Assembly (NCBI GenBank): GCA_024663395.1
Contig: JANFAH010000015.1
Span: 434,001 to 498,000, forward strand
From: Pisolithus tinctorius
Taxonomy: Eukaryota; Basidiomycota; Agaricomycetes; Boletales; Pisolithaceae
DNA: 64,000 bases
Direction of reading: 5' to 3'
Every line of letters begins with the position of its first letter. The stretch's first letter is position 1. The notes beneath the pieces were generated by a model. That model saw nothing but the letters and a program-made list of their open reading frames with translations. It was not told where the DNA came from and did no database searches. Positions 2,452-58,661 of the stretch are shown piece after piece. The position numbers and the translations under genes are program-made.

Positions 2452-3437
2452 GAGAGCCATGACCACCTGCTTCAATCCATCCACCAACACCTTGGGCTCA
2501 ATAATAATAGTTCACTCACTACACCACAATCAATGAAAAACATGCAAACATTGGGATAATTTTGTGAGCCACTGTACTGTCAGTTAATTCCACTGCCTCC
2601 AAGCCCCTGTCAATGCTCCCTTTGGAATTCATTCTGCTCATCACCTCAGGTTGCATCCTACCCCCTTGCAGCTTTGGAGTTGCTCGCAACCATCAACATG
2701 TTGTCCAGAGTCATTGATATGCCATTCCAAATTCTGCAACCTAGCCACTGCACCACCACATCACCAGTCAATCCTGCCATATGTCTGTAAAAAATCTGGT
2801 TACCCCTGTCACCCCAAAATCCTGCAAGACTTTCTTCATACCCATATACTCTCCCCTTTGGCATTCTGCCATCCCTCCTAGCTTTGCCTTCCACCCTTTG
2901 CTCTGTGGTACACCATACCATCAATCTTGTGGAAAATACCCATGCATCCTCTGCTCTTTTATTGACTACCTAACAGTCCAGTTTCACATGTCCCTGTACT
3001 TCACTGATGTCTGACACACCCACCTTTATTTTCCAGACTTTTAGTTTTTCTGCCCCACTTTGTTCTGACTTGTACCTACATCCCATGTACTATATAATTC
3101 TGCCTTAGTGTCAGAATAATACCCACCCACTTTTGGAGTCACTATCTATGTGTCTTTTGTGAGTCTAAGCATCCCCAGTGTCAAAAGAGTCTATTGCATC
3201 TACAGTGTCAACCATGTCTCCAGCCTCTCTCTTTCTTCTTGAGTTCTCTGCATCATACAAGTCCTTTATCATGCCCTCTTTATCAGGTAAATCCCCTCTT
3301 GGTGCCAAGGTCCTCATTCAGAATTCTGTATACCCAACCTGTTCACTCTTTGTGCACCTACAAACCCCCCCAGAATTAAATTCTGCATCTCTTGCTCATC
3401 TACCTACAGTGAAGGACAAAACTGTTGCAATGTTTGC
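2452..3437. other. No gene recognised (about 1 kb)
   Basis: CpG-poor, pyrimidine-rich sequence between the two fold-back elements. Short open frames exist on the plus strand but show no recognisable domain, no splice-supported extension and no repeated copy in the window. Confidence 0.5.
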
Positions 3438-24384: not shown

Positions 24385-26290
24385 GGCAATGATGGGACAT
24401 CCCACCCCCCATTTTTGGAGGCCAGTGGGAGGTCCCATGATAGCTTTGGAGGCTATTGTGGGACATCCCACCCCCCTCTCTGGAGGCCAGTGGGATGTCC
24501 CATGATAGCTTCAGAGGCTACTGTGGGACATCCCAGCCCCCTTTCCATAGGACAATGGGATGTCCCATGATAGCTTCAGAGGCTACTGTGGGACATCCCA
24601 CCCCCCTCTCTGGAGGCCAGTGGGATGTCCCATGATAGCTTCAGAAGCTACTGTGGGACATCCCAGCCCCTTTTCCATAGGACAATGGGATGTCCCATGA
24701 TAGCTTCAGAGGCTACTGTGGGACATCCCACTCCCCTCTCTGGAGGCCAGTGGGATGTCCCATGATAGCTTTGGAGGCTACTTTGGGACATCCCAACCCC
24801 CTCTATGGAGGTCAGTGAGATGTCCCATGAGAGCATCAGATGCTACCATGGGACATGCCACCCCCTTCTCTGGAGGCAAGTGGGATGTCCCATGATAGCT
24901 TCTGATGCTACTGTGAAACATCCCAACCCCCATTCTAGGGGACAGTGGGATGTTCCATGATAGCTTTGGAGGCTACTGTGGGACATCCAACCCCCCTTTC
25001 CAGAGGTCAGTGGGATGTCCCTTGATAGCTTCGGAGACTACTGTGGGACATCCCACCCTCCTCTCTGGAGGCCAGTGGGATGTCCCATGATAGCTTTGGA
25101 GGCTACTGTGGGACATCCCACCCCTTGCTCTGGAGACCAGTGGGATGTCCCATGATAGCTTCAGAAGCTACTGTGGGACATCCCAGCCCCCTTTCCATAG
25201 GACAATGGGATGTCCCATGATAGCTTCAGAGGCTACTGTGGGACATCCCACCCCCCTCTCTGGAGACCAGTGGGATGTCCCATGATAGCTTTAGAAGCTA
25301 CTGTGGGACATCCCAGCCCCCTTTCCATAGGACAATGGGATGTCCCATGATAGCTTCAGAGGCTACTGTGGGACATCCCACCCCCCTCTCTGGAGGCCAG
25401 TGGGATGTCCCATGATAGCTTTGGAGGCTACTATGGGACATCCCATCCTCCTCTCTGGAAGCCAGAGGGATCCCCCATGATAGCTTTGGAGGCTACTTTG
25501 GGACATCCCAACCCCCTCTGAGGAGGTCAGTGAGATGTCCCATGAGAGCATCAGATGCTACCATGGGACATGCCACCCCCTTCTCTGGAGGCAAGTGGGA
25601 TGTCCTATGATAGCTTCTGAAGCTACTGTGAAACATCCCAACCCCCATTCCAGGGGACAGTGGGATGTTCCATGATAGCTTTGGAGGCTACTGTGGGACA
25701 TCCAACCCCCCTTTCCAGAGGTCAGTGGGATGTCCCTTGATAGCTTCGGAGACTACTGTGGGACATCCCACCCTCCTCTCTGGAGGCCAGTGGGATGTCC
25801 CATGATAGCTTTGGAGGCTTCCATGGGACATCCCAACCCCCTTTCTATAGACAGTGGGATGTCCCATGATGGCTTTGGAGGCTACTGTGGGACATCCCAC
25901 CCCCCTTCCAGATGCCAGTGGGATGTCCCATGATAGCTTCAGAGGCTACTGTGGGACATCCCACCCTCCTCTCTGGAGGCCAGTGGGATGTCCCATGCTA
26001 GCTTTGGAGGCTACTATGGGACATCCCAACCCCCTTTCTATAGACAGTGGGATGTCCCATGATAGCTTTGGAGGCTACTGTGGGACATCCCACCCCCCTC
26101 TCTGGAGGCCAGTGGGATGTCCCACGATAGCTTTGGAGGATACTGTGGGATGTCCCACCCCCCCTTCCATAGGCCAATGGGATGTCCCATGGTAGCTTTG
26201 GAAGCTACTGTGGGACATCCCACTCCCCCCTCTGACGGCCAGTTGGACATTCCACCCCTCTCCATAGAGGCCAGTAGGATGTCCATGTAC
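24385..26290. repeat. Left hairpin minisatellite array (about 65-bp units)
   Basis: About 29 units of the form TGGGATGTCCCA, then a TAGCTT..AAGCTA-type inner palindrome, then TGGGACATCCCA, then a C-rich linker of about 20 bp. Each unit can fold into a hairpin with arms of about 21 bp. The two 12-mers are both one CpG transition from the perfect palindrome TGGGACGTCCCA. Open frames here are by-products. Confidence 0.9.
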
Positions 26291-34439: not shown

Positions 34440-35470
34440 AACACTAGGAAGGATGGGAAGACTTAATTAGCATCCCTACACAGGAGTAATCAGGGATCAG
34501 GAACTGAGGAAACAAGCGAGCCTCAAACTCACCAGCTTGTAAAATGAATGGAATATCCTCAGGAAATGAAAAGGTAGAGTTTAGGGTATATCCATACCAA
34601 GATGACTTTCGAAGGCTCCAAGCCTTTGAGAGCTGCCAAGGGCACCAAGCCCCTGGCCCTTGGTAGGGGATGCACCAAACGTTCCCCTGGTGTAATAGAT
34701 GTCAAAGAGAACGTACCGTTGACCATGAAAGTAAGAAAGTGAACAAGATAAACCTGATTAGCATCTCCACACAAAGGCGGTTGGAGATCAGCGAAGGAAG
34801 GGAGATGCAAGCCTCGAACTCACCGGCGGGCAAATTGAAAAGACTCTAGTATCGGAAGGAGAAGATGGAACTGGGGGTAGCCACAGCAAACCATCGGCCT
34901 TAATAGATAACAGAGAGAATGCTGCGTTAACCAGGAAAGTAAGAAAGCGAGCAAGAGAAACCCGATTAGTGTCCCTATACAAAGACGATCGGAGATCAGC
35001 GAAGGAAGGGGGAGATGCAAGCCTCGAACCCACCAGTGGGAAAAGTGAACGGAGTCTTGTCTCAGATGGACAAGGTGGAGCTGGGGGCAGCCATGGAAAA
35101 CCATTGGCCTTGATGGATAACGGAGAGAATGCTGCCTTAACCAGGAAAGTAAGAAAGTAAGCAAGAGAAACCTGATTAGCGTCCCTATACAAAGACGATT
35201 GGAGATCAGCTAAGGAAGGGAGATGCAAACCTTGAACCACCAACAGGCAAAGTGAACGAAGTCTTGTCTCAGAAGAAGGTGGAGATGGAGGCAGCCAAGG
35301 AGAAATGTCGGCCTTAACAGGTGATGGAGAGAATGTAGTGTTGATCAGGAAGTTTGAGAAAGCAAAGAGAAACTTGATTAACGTCTAGGGGAGACGCAAG
35401 CCTCGAACTCACCAGCGGGTAACGTGAACAGCTGAGTCTCCTTTGGGAAGTAAAAGATGGACTCCAGGGT
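34440..35470. repeat. Tandem repeat, about 207-bp units
   Basis: Units start near 34735, 34942, 35150 and 35348, with a partial one near 34450. Shared core: AAGTAAGAAAG, GAAACCTGATTAG, GGAGATCAGC, AGGGAGATGCAAGCC, CGAACTCACC. On the minus strand every unit has a donor-like GGTGAGTTCGAGG. Units are diverged from each other. No protein is recognised. Confidence 0.7.
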
Positions 35471-43159: not shown

Positions 43160-45690
43160 GCAGAATTGGGGGGATGGCCCCCAGTAACCTCCAAAGCTAT
43201 GATGAAACATGCTACTGGCCTCAAGAAGGGGGTGGGATGTCCCACAGTAGCCTCTGAAGCTATCATTGGACATCCCACTGGCCACTGGAAGGGGGGGGGG
43301 TGGAACATCCCACAGTAGCTTCCAAAGCTATCATGGGACATCCCATTGACCTCTGGAAGGGGGGATGGGATGTCCCACAGTAGCTTCCAAAGCTATCATG
43401 GGGCATCCCATTGGCCTATGAAAGGGGGGATGAGATGTCCCACAGTAGCTTCCAAAGCTACCATGGGACATCCCAATGGCCTATGGAAGGGGGATGGGAT
43501 GTCCCACAGTAGCCTCTGAAGCTATCATGGGACATCCCATTGACCTCTGGAAGGGGGGATGGGATGTCCCACAGTAGCTTCCAAAGCTACCATGGGACAT
43601 CCCATTGGCCTATGGAAGGGGGGGTGGGATGTCCCACAGTAGCCTCTGAAGCTATCATGGGACATCACACTGGCCTCTGGAAGGGGGGTGGGATGTCCCA
43701 CAGTAGCTTCCAAAGCTACCATGGGACATCCCATTGACCTATGGAAGGAGGGGTGGGATGTCCCACAGTAGCCTCTGAAGCTATCATGGGACATCCCACT
43801 GGCCTCTGGAAGGGGGGGTGGGACATCCCACAGTAGCTTCCAAAGCTACCATGGGACATCCCATTGGCCTATGGAAGGGGGATGGGATGTCCCACAGTAG
43901 CCTCTGAAGCTATCATGGGACATCCCACTGACCTCTAGAAGGGGGGGATGGGATGTCCCACATTAGCCTCTGAAGCTATCATGGGACATCCTACTGACCT
44001 CTGGAAGGGGGGTGGGATGTCCCACAGTAGCTTCCAAAGCTACCATGGGACATCCCATTGGCCTATGGAAGGGGGATGGGATGTCCCACAGTAGCCTCTG
44101 AAGCTATCATGGGACATCCCACTGACCTCTGGAAGGGGGGGTGGGACATCCCACAGTAGCTTCCAAAGCTACCATGGGACATCCCATTGGCCTATGGAAG
44201 GGGGATGGGATGTCCCACAGTAGCCTCTGAAGCTATCATGGGACATCCCACTGACCTCTGGAAGGGGGGGATGGGATGTCCCACATTAGCCTCTGAAGCT
44301 ATCATGGGACATCCTACTGACCTCTGGAAGGGGGGTGGGATGTCCCACAGTAGCTTCCAAAGCTACCATGGGACATCCCATTGGCCTATGGAAGGGGGAT
44401 GGGATGTCCCACAGTAGCCTCTGAAGCTATCATGGGACATCCCACTGACCTCTGGAAGGGGGGGTGGGACATCCCACAGTAGCTTCCAAAGCTACCATGG
44501 GACATCCCATTGGCCTATGGAAGGGGGATGGGATGTCCCACAGTAGCCTCTGAAGCTATCATGGGACATCCCACTGACCTCTGGAGGGGGGGTGGGATGT
44601 CCCACAGTAGCTTCCAAAGCTACCATGGGACATCCCATTGGCCTATGGAAGGGGGATGGGATGTCCCACAGTAGCCTCTGAAGCTATCATGGGACATCCC
44701 ACTGACCTCTGGAAGGGGGGGGTGGGACATCCCACAGTAGCTTCCAAAGCTACCATGGGACATCCCATTGGCCTATGGAAGGGGGATGGGATGTCCCACA
44801 GTAGCCTCTGAAGCTATCATGGGACATCCCACTGACCTCTGGAAGGGGGGTGGGATGTCCCACAGTAGCTTCCAAAGCTACCATGGGACATCCCAATGGC
44901 CTATGGAAGGGGGATGGGATGTCCCACCATAGCCTCTGAAGCTATCATGGGACATCCCACTGACCTATGGAAGGGGGATGGGATGTCCCACAGTAGCCTC
45001 TGAAGCTATCATGGGACATCCCACTGACCTCTGGAAGGGGGGGTGGGACATCCCACAGTAGCTTCCAAAGCTACCATGGGACATCCCATTGGCCTATAGA
45101 AGAGGGATGGGATGTCCCATAGTAGCCTCTGAAGCTATCATGGGACATCCCACTGACCTTTGGAAGGGGGGTGGGATGTCCCACAGTAGCTTCCAAAGCT
45201 ACCATGGGACATCCCAATGGCCTATGGAAGGGGGATGGGATGTCCCACCATAGCCTCTGAAGCTATCATGGGACATCCCACTGACCTATGGAAGGGGGAT
45301 GGGATGTCCCACAGTAGCCTCTGAAGCTATCATGGGACATCCCACTGACCTCTGGAAGGGGGGGTGGGACATCCCACGGTAGCTTCCAAAGCTACCATGG
45401 GACATCCCATTGGCCTATGGAAGAGGGATGGGATGTCCCATAGTAGCCTCTGAAGCTATCATGGGACATCCCACTGACCTCTGGAAGGGGGGTGGGATGT
45501 CCCACAGTAGCTTCCAAAGCTACAATGGGACATCCCAATGGCCTATGGAAGGGGGATGGGATGTCCCACCATAGCCTCTGAAGCTATCATGGGACATCCC
45601 ACTGGCCTATGGAAGGGGGGGGGTGGGATGTCCCACAGTGGCCTCCAAAGCTATCAAGGGGCATCCCACTGTCCTGGGCATGGGGCCCCA
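43160..45690. repeat. Right hairpin minisatellite array (about 65-bp units, about 39 copies)
   Basis: Same unit as the left array in inverted orientation: GGGATGTCCCACAGTAGC, AAGCTATCATGGGACATCCC, CTCTGGAAGGGGG. Two unit types alternate (AGCCTCTGAAGCTATCA and AGCTTCCAAAGCTACCA). In 44880-45600 a higher-order repeat of about 323 bp (five units) is visible: the phrase CATCCCAATGGCCTATGG recurs at about 44885, 45207 and 45530. Confidence 0.92.
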
Positions 45691-53997: not shown

Positions 53998-56900
53998 TCA
54001 AAGTGTTGGAAACACTGGACACATGCACTCACATAGACGATTCTCCAAAATGATTTGCACAAGAGTTTGACACAAATTTTTCCAGTCATGACCATGCTGC
54101 TCCACAGCAGAGTTGACAACCTGTTGGATAGTGGCTTCAACACCAGAACTCTTGTACTCATTGACAGCCAGAGAGACAACATCTTCATTCACAGGTGCTT
54201 GTCCATTTTGCAATAAAAAGTAACAATATTCAAAAATCAGCAGGCAATCTAAGGTGTTGAGTATCACTGAAGGAGAAGATGAGTACTACTTACAAATACC
54301 ATGCTCAGCTATTGAGTGAGTGGTGACCTCTTCTGAAGGTGCATTGGAGTTCCCTTCAGTTGTAAGTTTTGCCTAAGTTTACATATGTGACATTATGACA
54401 GCCTCAATCCCATCACAAAATGGGACTTACTGCCTGAGGTTGCAGCAGCAAAGAATGCATGGAAATAATCCATATCACCACAGGTGTAAGGAAAATAAAA
54501 TGATCAAATCACACACATCCTGGTGAATGATAACCAAGATGATAACAAAGATAGTAAGTCAGTAGGAATGGAGTTCACAAGCCACAGAATTGCTTACAAG
54601 CTGTGATCACACCAGGAAATAATGTGTGAGTGAGTTCATGCAACAGATAATGACTCTCAGACATCACTCACATCCTACCACCAAGGGCAGCACAAGCAGA
54701 CAACTCAGTACATATCCAGCCAATCTGTGCATGAAATTACTCACAAGCTGTGATGGCACAAAACAAGCACAGTGCAAGTGGGGCCAGTCAGCAGACATCC
54801 AACCAAGCCTGCCATGAAATCACTCACACCCTGTCATGGCACAAACAAGCACAGTGCAAGTGGGGCCAGTCAGCAGACATCCAACCAAACCTGCCATGAA
54901 ATCACTCACACCCTGTCATGGCACAAACAAGCACAGTGCAAGTGGGGCCAGTCAGCAGACATCCAACCAAACCTGCCATGAAATCACTCACAGGCTGTCA
55001 TGGCACAAACAAGCACAGTGCAAGTGGGGCCAGTCAGCAGACATCCAACCAAACCTGCCATGAGATCACTCACAAGCTGTCATGGCACAAACAAGCACAG
55101 TGCGAGTGGGGCCAGTCAGCAGACATCCAACCAAACCTGCCATGAAATCACTCACAGGCTGTCATGGCACAAACAAGCACAGTGCAAGTGGGGCCAGTCA
55201 GCAGACATCCAACCAAACCTGCCATGAAATCACTCACAAACTGTCATGGCACAAACAAGTACAGTGCAAGTGGGGCCAGTCAGCAGACATCCAACCAAAC
55301 CTGCCATGAAATCACTCACACCCTGTCATGGCACAAACAAGCACAGTGCAAGTGGGGCCAGTCAGCAGACATCCAACCAAACCTGCCATGAAATCACTCA
55401 CAGGCTGTCATGGCACAAACAAGCACAGTGCAAGTGGGGCCAGTCAGCAGACATCCAACCAAACCTGCCATGAAATCACTCACAAGCTGTCATGGCACAA
55501 ACAAGCACAGTGCAAGTGGGGCCAGTCAGCAGACATCCAACCAAACCTGCCATGAAATCACTCACATGCTGTCATGGCACAAACAAGCACAGTGCAAGTG
55601 GGGCCAGTCAGCAGACATCCAACCAAACCTGCCATGAGATCACTCACAAGCTGTCATGGCACAAACAAGCACAGTGCAAGTGGAGCCAGTCAGCAGACAT
55701 CCAACCAAACCTGCCATGAAATCACTCACAGGCTGTCATGGCACAAACAAGCACAGTGCAAGTGGGGCCAGTCAGCAAACATCCAACCAAACCTGCCATG
55801 AAATCACTCACAGGCTGTCATGGCACAAACAAGCACAGTGCAAGTGGGGCCAGTCAGCAGACATCCAACCAAACCTGCCATGAAATCACTCACAGGCTGT
55901 CATGGCACAAACAAGCACAGTGCAAGTGGGGCCAGTCAGCAGACATCCAACCAAACCTGCCATGAAATCACTCACAGGCTGTCATGGCACAAACAAGCAC
56001 AGTGTGAGTGGGGCCAGTCAGCAGACATCCAACCAAACCTGCCATGAAATCACTCACAGGCTGTCATGGCACAAACAAGCACAGTGCAAGTGGGGCCAGT
56101 CAGCAGACATCCAACCAAACCTGCCATGAAATCACTCACACCCTGTCATGGCACAAACAAGCACAGTGCAAGTGGGGCCAGTCAGCAGACATCCAACCAA
56201 ACCTGCCATGAAATCACTCACACCCTGTCATGGCACAAACAAGCACAGTGCAAGTGGGGCCAGTCAGCAGACATCCAACCAAACCTGCCATGAAATCACT
56301 CACAGGCTGTCATGGCACAAACAAGCACAGTGCAAGTGGGGCCAGTCAGCAGACATCCAACCAAACCTGCCATGAAATCACTCACACCCTGTCATGGCAC
56401 AAACAAGCACAGTGCAAGTGGGGCCAGTCAGCAGACATCCAACCAAACCTGCCATGAAATCACTCACACCCTGTCATGGCACAAACAAGCACAGTGCAAG
56501 TGGGGCCAGTCAGCAGACATCCAACCAAACCTGCCAAGAAATCACTCACAAGCTGTCATGGCACAGTGATGCATACCATAAATGCAATCTGTCAGTGAGC
56601 ATCCTCCTAAATCTGCCATGTCATCACTTACAAACTGTCATTCCACATCCAGATATCATGCAGGTGACACCAGTTAGTACACATCCACCTTCATCTGCCA
56701 TGAAGTCACAAACCTTCTATATCACATTATATGCACATGGCATGTCAGTTCACAATGTGCAGATAACCCTGCCATAAAATACCATACTTCCTGTCAAGCC
56801 AATCCAAATGAGGTCACTGAATCTTCAGGCAACCTTCCATGAAATCACCCACAACCTGACAGGTCAGAAAAATTCAAGGCATTTGCACCACCAGTCAGTA

Positions 56901-58661
56901 AACAGTATTCCTACCCCAGTCACAATGTTACTCACCATCTGTTATGCCAAAGATATGTGCAGAACATGTGAGGACATCCATTGCATTTAGCAACACCTGT
57001 GGCCCCACAATCAGATACTCACATCATGCTTGGGGAACCAACTGAGCATAGTAGATTCAAAATCTCTGATGTCATATCTTTCCCCTCTCTCAATTACATT
57101 TTTCATCATTCTTCCCACCACCCTTCAGAATATCAGAATTTGTGGTGAGTGCACACTGCTGGCTTACCAGTATACAGCATATTCAATACATAAACCAATG
57201 CTTGACTGCTGGGTTGATATAAGCAACCTCTGCAGGCCTTCCTCATCCAATACACTTGCTGTGCACTGGATCAAAGTAGTGCAATCTGCACTCTCATTAT
57301 GCATCTCTGTGAAGAATTCTTGCATCAAGCACAACCATCTATCACAAATGCAGTACTCACCTGCCAGTGGGAGATACAATTTAGGTGGGAATTTGCACTG
57401 CTCCATTATCTGTTTGATGTGTGTCTGCCACTTTTCTAATAACAGAGATTCCCTTTCTCTGGCCTTTTCCTCTGCTTCCTCCATCTCTAACCCTTCATCC
57501 AGAAGTTCCTCAATGGCAGCAAAATTCAATGCATCCACCTTTGTTAGCAGCACTACCACCGGGACTATGGAGATTCTTGTCAGTGACAGCCACAATTCCA
57601 GAAGTGAACATACCATGTCCTGTGTCACACTCATTGAAGAACTTCTGTTCAGCTGCAGTGACTGTCCTGTGGTAGTCAGTCATGGGGATACAATACCTAT
57701 GTATACCTGATGGTCAGTTGAGTCAGTAACTACTCCTAAGGCAATTCTCACCAAATTGCATGGATACGCTTCTTCAGTGTTGTTGCAGTTGCATGGTCCA
57801 GAACAAACTTTTTCATCTCCTCAAACTGTTCAGCAGATCCTGCCTCAAACCCTGGAGAGTCATGGAATACAAAGCCTGGGTTACTCTTGAACACAAGCTC
57901 ATCTTCAATGTTATGGTAGCCACGCTGGAGGTAATCAACTGTCACCTGACTTGCAATCCAAGGTATGTAGCATCTTACCCCTAAAGTGCCTTGCACGACA
58001 ACGTTGTCAATCTACAAATTGTTAGATAAGTGCCAAAGACTTCGCATCAGCACACCTTGTTTCCCTTTCCATCAAATATATCAGGTTTGTCTACAGTGTT
58101 ACAGACCCTCTGAAGGATGGTCGTTTTGCCGGCATTTCCTCTTCCAATGACCAAAACTCGAAATCTCTCAATATTTTTCATGTACTCCTTGGCCATTTGG
58201 GGATCCAAATGAAATGGAGCACGTGAAGGAGTGGTTTCTATCCCAAAACATCAAGGCCATCCACATCCGCCAATTAACAGTAGTCATACTTATCATAGCA
58301 CCTAGATCAGTCATTTCACCCGTGAGATTGCTGGCTGCCGCGTTTAGATCTTAGGAACTAGTTGTAGCAGATCATAATAAGCAACGTTAACAACAGTACC
58401 TGCACTGGCGGTGGCTTCAGCAGTACCATCCGTGGCAACCGCAACTGGAACGGAGCTTGTCATATCACCAGTTGGGTTACTGCCATCTGCACTCAAATTT
58501 TAGCAACTAGTTGGCCTATGATGACAAGTAAATACGATAGCACCTGTAGTTGCTGTTTCAGCTGTAACCGGATCACCGTGACTCTTGTCGGAGCGACGCG
58601 AGTGAGCGGCCCTGGCACAGGGCAAGGAAGCCAGAAACTTCTTTACACGTCCGGGAGCCAT
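53998..58661 (-). CDS. GTPase (TRAFAC/MMR_HSR1-type) with a microexon array; multi-exon
   Basis: Exons: 58661-58544, 58486-58400, 58334-58302, 58237-58056, 58011-57979, 57924-57752, 57696-57614, 57564-57361, 57306-57168, 57122-57023, then 31 three-base exons (56938 to 54431), then 54372-54294 and 54197-53998. The first ten exons total 1152 nt (384 codons), the last two 279 nt, and all junctions keep frame with no internal stop, giving about 507 residues. G1 is GRGNAGKT, G3 region FHDSPGFEAG, G4 TKVD (VVVLLTKVDALN). The start MAPGRVKKFLASLPC is followed by a Ser/Thr/Ala-rich region. Such GTPases bind and hydrolyse GTP, and this fungal family has no assigned role. CpG is normal in the N-terminal exons and lost from E6 onward. 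Splicing is inferred. Confidence 0.8.
54431..56938 (-). repeat. Tandem array of mini-introns and 3-nt microexons (23 core units of 82 bp)
   Basis: Core 54745-56552: 23 near-identical 82-bp units. On the minus strand each reads CATGACAG, three bases NNT, GTGAGTGATTTCATGG, and contains GCTGACTGG (branch-point-like CTGAC): a complete 79-nt intron plus a 3-nt exon. NN takes five values (CC 9, GG 7, CT 5, CA 1, TT 1 on the minus strand). Diverged units outside keep AG-3 nt-GT: ATG 56936, GTT 56853, GAA 56788, TTT 56632, GAT 54672, CTT 54598, GAT 54517, GCA 54431. Implied introns are 58-84 nt except one of 153. Open frames on the plus strand are by-products of the 82-bp period. Confidence 0.85.

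What the first reader, a model, noticed from the sequence alone, without database searches (positions are those of the whole stretch)
54431..56938. An array of 31 three-base microexons separated by mini-introns inside an otherwise intact GTPase gene
Seen: on the minus strand each 82-bp unit contains donor GTGAGT, branch-point-like CTGAC, acceptor ACAG, exactly three bases, then the next GTGAGT. Diverged units on both sides, with different donors (GTAAGT, GTAAGC, GTATGG, GTGGGT, GTGTGT) and different codons, keep the same AG-3 nt-GT spacing, and the implied introns are 58-84 nt (one 153), normal for fungi. The exon before the array ends in phase 0 and the exon after starts in phase 0, so every combination of included microexons, or none, leaves the 507-residue frame open. 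Known: 3-nt exons are very rare. Inferred: a combinatorial splicing cassette that inserts a variable short peptide behind a G domain. I know of no description of such an array.
Basis: partly seen in the sequence, partly recalled or inferred. Interest (0 to 1): 0.96.

Follow-up and report, generated by a model that had tools for sequence, protein, structure and literature searches.

The report
Array of one-codon microexons
In a mushroom-forming fungus a GTPase gene contains a row of 32 three-letter units, each laid out as a one-codon exon between tiny introns, that are predicted to be spliced together into a variable protein tail; spliced sequences of two sister genes spell such tails unit by unit, and the layout would let a protein gain or lose one amino acid at a time.

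Summary
The genome is Pisolithus tinctorius (Boletales). All 18 distinct places that two searches fetched by GTPase similarity alone, and 21 arrays studied in detail, carry such an array. Genome-wide, of 662 acceptor-donor pairs 0-12 nt apart, 659 have exactly 3 nt; 1 of these 659 triplets is a stop. Direct evidence of splicing: database protein P0028, from a 1,695-nt contig, ends in 44 residues, 43 of which are spelled in order by microexons 1-44 of its gene (3.5 kb of DNA); P0084 ends after six residues, exactly where microexon seven is TGA. These tails show uninterrupted inclusion, not combinatorial skipping. No transcript of the window's own gene was found. Introns can be identical while codons differ: 13 identical introns in the window carry five codons. 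Best reading: a GTPase family with a hypervariable linker built of one-residue exons, likely diversified by gain and loss of units plus selection; a role in recognition is inferred. Ten literature searches listed no description of such arrays.

The parts
57023..58661 (-). upstream exons 1-10 of the GTPase gene with their introns (exons 58661-58544, 58486-58400, 58334-58302, 58237-58056, 58011-57979, 57924-57752, 57696-57614, 57564-57361, 57306-57168, 57122-57023); last one ends ...SWFPKHD in phase 0
   Evidence: script model; homology; exons 2-4 boundaries uncertain
56939..57022 (-). first intron of the array, 84 nt, GTGAGT...ACAG
56632..56938 (-). five diverged 5' units: microexons at 56938 ATG, 56855 GTT, 56790 GAA, 56716 AAG, 56634 TTT (first base given)
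54828..56552 (-). core: 22 microexons every 82 bp from 56552 to 54830 (CTT GGT GGT CCT GGT GGT CCT CCT CCT CCT CCT CTT CAT CTT CCT GGT TTT CCT CTT CCT GGT GGT) with 79-nt introns
54373..54430 (-). last intron of the array, 58 nt
53998..54372 (-). downstream exons encoding AKLTTEG... and the conserved C-terminal region, with one short intron of uncertain borders
   Evidence: homology to P0003, P0004

Best explanation
The window holds a GTPase gene with 32 AG-NNN-GT units that are predicted to be one-codon exons, likely all spliced in order into a 32-residue tail, as spliced sequences show directly for two sister genes. The tail stands between the GTPase part and a C-terminal helical region and is predicted to be a flexible linker. 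Shown: the layout, its presence in every family member looked at, the 3-nt spacing, stop avoidance, two spliced tails spelled by the microexons, and a copy that lacks two whole units. Inferred: each intron is removed in the ordinary way by intron definition, so that a 3-nt exon need never be recognised as an exon; because each unit brings exactly one codon, gain or loss of a unit by slippage or unequal exchange changes the tail by one residue without frameshift, although the repeat length (82) is not a multiple of three; selection for different residues, together with homogenisation of introns, likely explains why codons differ between units with identical introns. Inferred with weaker support: the tails serve molecular recognition, by analogy with repeat domains of fungal incompatibility proteins.
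For: Spliced sequences: P0028 (467 aa, contig 1,695 nt) has 44 residues after WFPNTK; 43 of 44 equal, in order and without gap, microexons 1-44 of L033, which span 3,527 bp and include one GC donor and introns of 76-83 nt; at the one difference (Q for R) the close copy L034 also reads Q. P0084 ends WFPY-ADGFYG; L035 microexons 1-6 read ADGFYG and the 7th is TGA. Spacing: TGACAG-N{0,12}-GTGAGTGAT 662 places, 659 with 3 nt (reversed-pattern controls 5 and 0); with a longer pattern 215 of 215. Stops: TAA or TGA 1 of 659, TAG 0 of 659; in 21 arrays 5 of 762 units; without L034 2 of 702 against 27.0 expected, 0 of 10,000 permutations as low; [TAA+TAG]:TAT 0:59 against 143:145 for the other first bases, p 7e-16; TGA:TGG 5:44 against 22:47, p 0.007. 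Generality: all 24 locus records (18 distinct places; the 12 best matches of each of two searches by GTPase similarity) hold a 3-nt chain of 10-20 units, up to two leading ones being outside the array. Four further arrays have mostly 75- or 77-nt introns and still 3-nt exons; 0 stops in 111 further units of seven arrays. Splice signals: in 462 introns of 79 nt GT, G5, T38, A40 and AG are nearly invariant; strict CTRAY occurs in 133 of 279 introns of other length against 52 in shuffles. Unit loss: L034 lacks 163 bp and two units.
Against: No transcript of the window's own gene: the one search for its tail found none. Both mapped tails end inside the array (P0084 at TGA, P0028 where L034 has TGA next); run-through into the C-terminal region is seen only in P0019 and P0025, whose genes are not among the loci held. 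P0084's longest contig (6,075 nt) could hold the gene unspliced, so only for P0028 does contig length prove splicing. The source label 'lgn' is not defined by the tool; RNA origin is my inference. Tails of P0100 and P0117 end in peptides like a retained intron. Annotators' models mostly stop at, jump or misread the array. Strict CTRAY is in only 241 of 462 introns of 79 nt. In two records (L022, L030) a chain of another spacing is nearly as long as the 3-nt chain (16 and 15 against 18 and 17), and k = 7 chains reach 47 against 51 in L039, as repeats allow. Between L033 and L034 codons did not change much faster than introns and flanks (5 of 180 against 84 of 5,047 sites), which speaks against fast codon change now. 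Recognition is untested.
Confidence: 0.85

Rival explanations
1. Combinatorial alternative splicing: microexons are skipped in many combinations so that one gene makes many tails.
For: every combination keeps the frame; retained-intron-like ends in P0100 and P0117 show that splicing is not uniform.
Against: 43 of 44 and 6 of 6 consecutive microexons are present in the two mapped tails, none skipped.
Confidence: 0.12
2. Intron invasion: the tail codons are old and near-identical mobile introns (introner-like) were inserted between them, one per codon.
For: codon and intron are decoupled: 13 identical introns in the window carry 5 codons; pairs with identical introns share the codon in only 25% of 189.
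Against: insertion at exactly every third base in 659 of 662 places has no known mechanism; P0023, a homologue model without the tail, lacks the residues rather than having them in one exon; the array loci examined all lie in one gene family, though other pattern places could not be fetched.
Confidence: 0.12
3. Targeted mutation of the codons: a mechanism rewrites the triplets while sparing the introns.
For: exon positions are far more variable than introns within arrays (51% against 2.1% per site in 1,137 pairs with at most 3 intron differences).
Against: close copies L033 and L034 show no such excess (5 of 180 against 84 of 5,047 sites); in the window's class the third base stays T in 178 of 198 units.
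Confidence: 0.06
4. A non-coding minisatellite inside one long intron of about 2.65 kb, with splice-like motifs by descent only.
For: it is a tandem repeat; older models leave the array out.
Against: spliced tails spelled by the units, stop avoidance, equal exon size in arrays of different period.
Confidence: 0.05

Closest known systems
Schistosoma micro-exon genes (MEG)
   Same: genes built largely of very short exons, mostly multiples of three, in a multigene family linked to protein variation (PMC10526429, passages read)
   Different: MEG exons are mostly 15 bp and at least 6 bp in its results section (abstract: 3-81), with 10-20 exons per gene and introns of 0.1-5 kb; here every unit is 3 nt, up to 62 per gene, in a tandem array of introns mostly of 75-79 nt, inside a GTPase gene
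Podospora HNWD / het-d, het-e, het-r incompatibility genes
   Same: NTPase proteins with a tandem repeat region varying in unit number, concerted evolution and diversifying selection at a few codons per unit (PMC1805685 and PMC2873952, abstracts and outlines read)
   Different: there the repeat is an exonic WD repeat domain; here each repeat yields one residue and the rest is intron
Single 3-nt exons (e.g. in RPS24) and the Xlr2 microexon of Trichoderma virens
   Same: very small exons; Xlr2 is a functional microexon in a filamentous fungus (PMC11121469, abstract and passages; RPS24 PMC12686416, search listing only)
   Different: single regulated microexons, not arrays
Introner-like elements (recalled, no call)
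   Same: many near-identical introns in one genome
   Different: scattered in many genes; here in tandem, 3 nt apart, in one gene family
PRDM9 zinc-finger arrays (recalled, no call)
   Same: tandem repeat with homogeneous units and a few hypervariable codons
   Different: the whole repeat is exonic and in frame; here the variable codon is the only exonic part

Membership tests
P-loop GTPases | G1 GxxxxGK[ST], G3 DxxG and G4 [NT]KxD motifs and a family profile match | tested here: met
   GRGNAGKT, DSPG and TKVD in the model; Pfam Arf 24.2 bits (cut-off 22.3) and MMR_HSR1 23 (21.9)
Immunity-related GTPases (IRG) / dynamin-like | closest fold of the G domain | tested here: inconclusive
Schistosoma-type micro-exon genes | series of short symmetric exons | tested here: met
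   32 units of 3 nt, phase 0; splicing shown for sister genes only
Schistosoma-type micro-exon genes | long introns (0.1-5 kb) | tested here: not met
   introns of 62-84 nt in and beside the array except the last, 58 nt
Schistosoma-type micro-exon genes | secreted protein with signal peptide | not tested
   no signal peptide predictor was run; the product is a GTPase
Fungal NLR / HNWD incompatibility proteins | NACHT or NB-ARC domain and WD40, TPR or ANK repeats (features recalled) | tested here: not met
   no such domain among Pfam matches up to E 0.01 of 31 family members; only nucleotide-binding families and one DUF
Fungal NLR / HNWD incompatibility proteins | repeat region controls non-self recognition | not testable with these tools
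   needs genetics
Introner-like elements | near-identical introns dispersed in unrelated genes (recalled) | tested here: inconclusive
   loci examined lie in the GTPase family; pattern places elsewhere, e.g. C15:395 kb, could not be fetched

The most novel reading that the evidence does not exclude
A movable-type protein diversification system: in a large GTPase family each amino acid of a recognition tail sits on its own three-base exon inside an intron cassette, so recombination among nearly identical introns, within and between genes, composes new tails letter by letter without frameshift, while codons are decoupled from their introns by strong diversifying selection or by an intron-copying process not yet described.
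Probability: 0.35. Interest if true: 0.97.

Novelty: categorically new. Interest (0 to 1): 0.95.

Why it matters
Splicing dozens of three-base exons in a row, each between introns of about 79 nt, tests how the spliceosome defines exons. It also shows a way in which a tandem repeat of any length could change a protein one residue at a time and in frame. Most annotated models of this family stop at or jump the array, so such protein parts may be invisible in other genomes too. If the tails take part in recognition, the family would be a new kind of hypervariable repertoire in fungi.

Tried and rejected
Ordinary minisatellite in an intron: rejected by the spliced tails, stop avoidance and diverged units. 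Other exon sizes: k = 7 chains come from a second GTGATT inside GTGAGTGATT (up to 47 units in L039), k = 1 and 6 on the opposite strand from the repeat itself, and in L022 and L030 another spacing gives 16 and 15 units against 18 and 17. Reversed and reverse-complemented triplets were looked at as a stop control and dropped, because GAT read backwards is TAG. The first stop count (7 of 765) included three leading calls that are not array units (two in L039, one in L052); they were removed before (762 units). The copies L013/L014 (0 of 3,546 sites differ) and L018/L019 (1 of 3,546) are too alike to compare codon with intron change. A search for the window's tail found nothing; one with the C-terminal part of P0019 found P0019 and two others. 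Structure searches gave no family finer than the GTPase fold; the C-terminal helical region was not searched alone. Literature: ten searches, read as listings except for the four papers named, listed no paper on arrays of 3-nt exons; none holds both Pisolithus and microexon. bioRxiv and most subscription journals are not held.
Full report
What was checked. The minus strand of 57100-54000 was read and scanned for AG-NNN-GT. There are 32 units with first bases at 56938, 56855, 56790, 56716, 56634, then every 82 bp from 56552 to 54830, then 54747, 54674, 54600, 54519 and 54433. Their codons read MVEKFLGGPGGPPPPPLHLPGFPLPGGLDLDA, without a stop. The introns between them are 62-83 nt, 23 of 31 being 79 nt; the flanking introns are 84 and 58 nt. 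Exons before and after are in phase 0. The gene encodes a P-loop GTPase and continues after the array into a C-terminal region that homologues share.

Chance. In this region the longest chain of acceptor, k bases, donor is 28 units for k = 3, 11 for k = 7 (a second donor-like GTGATT) and at most 1 for the other k from 0 to 12; 300 dinucleotide shuffles gave at most 2, and the other parts of the window at most 3. But a near-perfect repeat makes long chains on any spacing it happens to contain: the opposite strand gives 22 for k = 1 and 6. The repeat core alone therefore proves little.

Whose genome. The best protein hit is Pisolithus tinctorius Marx 270 (97% identity over 71% of the query), and lengths of contigs C1, C15 and C40 equal those given for P. 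tinctorius records. The species belongs to the Boletales; that it is ectomycorrhizal is recalled.

The array is a family trait. A pattern of 20 fixed bases around the microexon occurs 215 times in the genome. Twenty stretches of 9.5-9.9 kb around family members were fetched, some chosen for pattern hits, some for GTPase similarity only. All 20, and the window, hold a chain of 10-62 units. In 19 of the 21 the script finds the WFP exon 51-122 nt before the first unit; in L052 after a false first unit is dropped; in L039 it did not find that exon. To avoid the bias of choice I took the 24 locus records that two protein searches fetched (the 12 best matches of each): all 24, which are 18 distinct places, hold a chain of 10-20 three-base units. 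In 15 of the 24 the WFP exon stands 58-131 nt before the first unit; in the others the chain takes in one or two leading false units or the exon was not found. In L022 and L030 a chain of another spacing is nearly as long (16 and 15 against 18 and 17). Four of these arrays have mostly 75-nt (L021, L026) or 77-nt (L022, L030) introns and still 3-nt exons.

Spacing. Allowing 0-12 nt between TGACAG and GTGAGTGAT gives 662 places; 659 have exactly 3. The reversed-pattern control gives 5 for the open spacing and 0 for 3 nt, so the three exceptions are at chance level. With the longer pattern 215 of 215 have 3 nt.

Stops. Of the 659, one is TGA (in the gene of L034), none TAA or TAG. In the 21 arrays 5 of 762 units are stops, all TGA: three in L034, one each in L035 and L051. 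Leaving out L034, 2 of 702 against 27.0 expected from shuffled codon positions, 0 of 10,000 permutations as low. [TAA+TAG]:TAT is 0:59, against 143:145 for the other first bases (Fisher p = 7e-16); TGA:TGG is 5:44 against 22:47 (p = 0.007). The third base is C in 0 of 762. Seven further arrays add 111 units without a stop.

Spliced sequences. Seven of the 120 listed homologues carry the source label lgn, with longest contigs of 1.4-6.1 kb. P0028, 467 residues from a contig of 1,695 nt, ends after WFPNTK with DLPPYEQPQYQQQEGETREQWYERRYQEEQEQEQQHEQEYQEQQ. In L033 (C109) microexons 1-44 read the same letters with one difference (R for the last Q; the close copy L034 has Q there and TGA next). They span 3,527 bp, more than twice the whole contig, and include a GC donor. 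So these microexons are spliced in, each of them, in order. P0084 ends WFPY-ADGFYG, and L035 reads A, D, G, F, Y, G, TGA; its longest contig, 6,075 nt, would not by itself prove splicing. P0019 and P0025 have tails of the same kind and run on into the C-terminal region, but their genes are not among the loci held. P0100 and P0117 end in peptides like the in-frame reading of such an intron, so retention seems to occur. Of two models of what looks like one P. microcarpus gene, P0071 has some 55 residues more than P0061 at this very place, which suggests the same layout there; its DNA could not be read. The window's own gene has no transcript here: one search found none.

Splice signals. Of 741 introns in 21 arrays, 569 begin GTGAGT; 611 end CAG, 122 TAG, 8 AAG. 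In the 462 introns of 79 nt GT, G5, T38 (99%), A40 (100%) and AG are nearly invariant, as in a CTNA branch site; strict CTRAY is in 241 of 462, and in 133 of 279 introns of other length against 52 in shuffles. Codon positions are the most variable (mean heterozygosity 0.63, 0.62, 0.40 against 0-0.30 in introns).

Codons and introns are decoupled. Of 1,137 within-array pairs with at most 3 intron differences, 952 have different codons: 2.1% against 51% difference per site. In the window 13 introns are identical over 79 nt and carry GGT 5, CCT 5, CAT 1, CTT 1, TTT 1. Pairs with identical introns share the codon in 25% of 189, pairs with 12 or more differences in 13% of 2,254. Codons two units apart are identical more often than in shuffles (104 against 62.3, 0 of 2,000), one unit apart more weakly (78 against 63.9, 59 of 2,000), which points to duplication in pairs. 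In the window's class 178 of 198 third bases are T, so that a change in the first two bases cannot make a stop. Against steady fast codon change: L033 and L034 differ at 5 of 180 codon sites and 84 of 5,047 other sites of the aligned stretch; three of the five are C to T, and all three lie in codons that read TGA in L034; L034 also lacks 163 bp and has two units fewer. Homogeneous units with a few diversifying codons were described for WD repeats of Podospora incompatibility genes, with concerted evolution and positive selection (PMC1805685, PMC2873952; abstracts and outlines). Why introns can be identical while codons differ so much is the least explained point.

How it most likely works. Shown: layout, presence in all family members looked at, spacing, stop avoidance, splicing in two sister genes, a copy with two units fewer. 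Inferred: introns are removed one by one by intron definition; units are gained and lost by slippage or exchange; selection diversifies codons; tails serve recognition. For the window's own gene splicing is inferred from its sisters.

Known or new. The closest relatives in kind are Schistosoma micro-exon genes (smallest exon 6 bp in the passages of the results, 3-81 in the abstract; PMC10526429). A 2024 paper states that functional microexons had not been described before in filamentous fungi (PMC11121469, abstract and passages). Single 3-nt exons are known, for example in RPS24 (listing). Ten searches of the held library listed no array of 3-nt exons.

Noticed in passing
window 24393-26247 and 43171-45675: Two minisatellites of 64-65-bp units (28.6 and 38.8 copies) sharing TGGGACATCCCA / TGGGATGTCCCA motifs, without a long open frame; no link to the microexon array seen.
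   Followed up: partly
window 34717-35335: A 210-bp unit repeated three times, open for 181 codons on the minus strand.
   Followed up: no
L034 locus positions 3248, 3657, 5296: Three TGA microexons where the close copy L033 reads CGA, CGA and CAA; each involves a C to T change.
   Followed up: partly
21 arrays (L033-L052 and window): The third base of microexons is never C (0 of 762); serine and cysteine are rare.
   Followed up: partly
20 arrays (without L034): Identical codons occur two units apart more often than in shuffles (104 against 62.3), hinting at a two-unit recombination period.
   Followed up: partly
C17:1197 kb with C40:9 kb; C38:593 kb with C117:72 kb: Array genes present on two contigs with 0 or 1 difference in 3,546 bp, probably haplotype or assembly duplicates.
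   Followed up: partly
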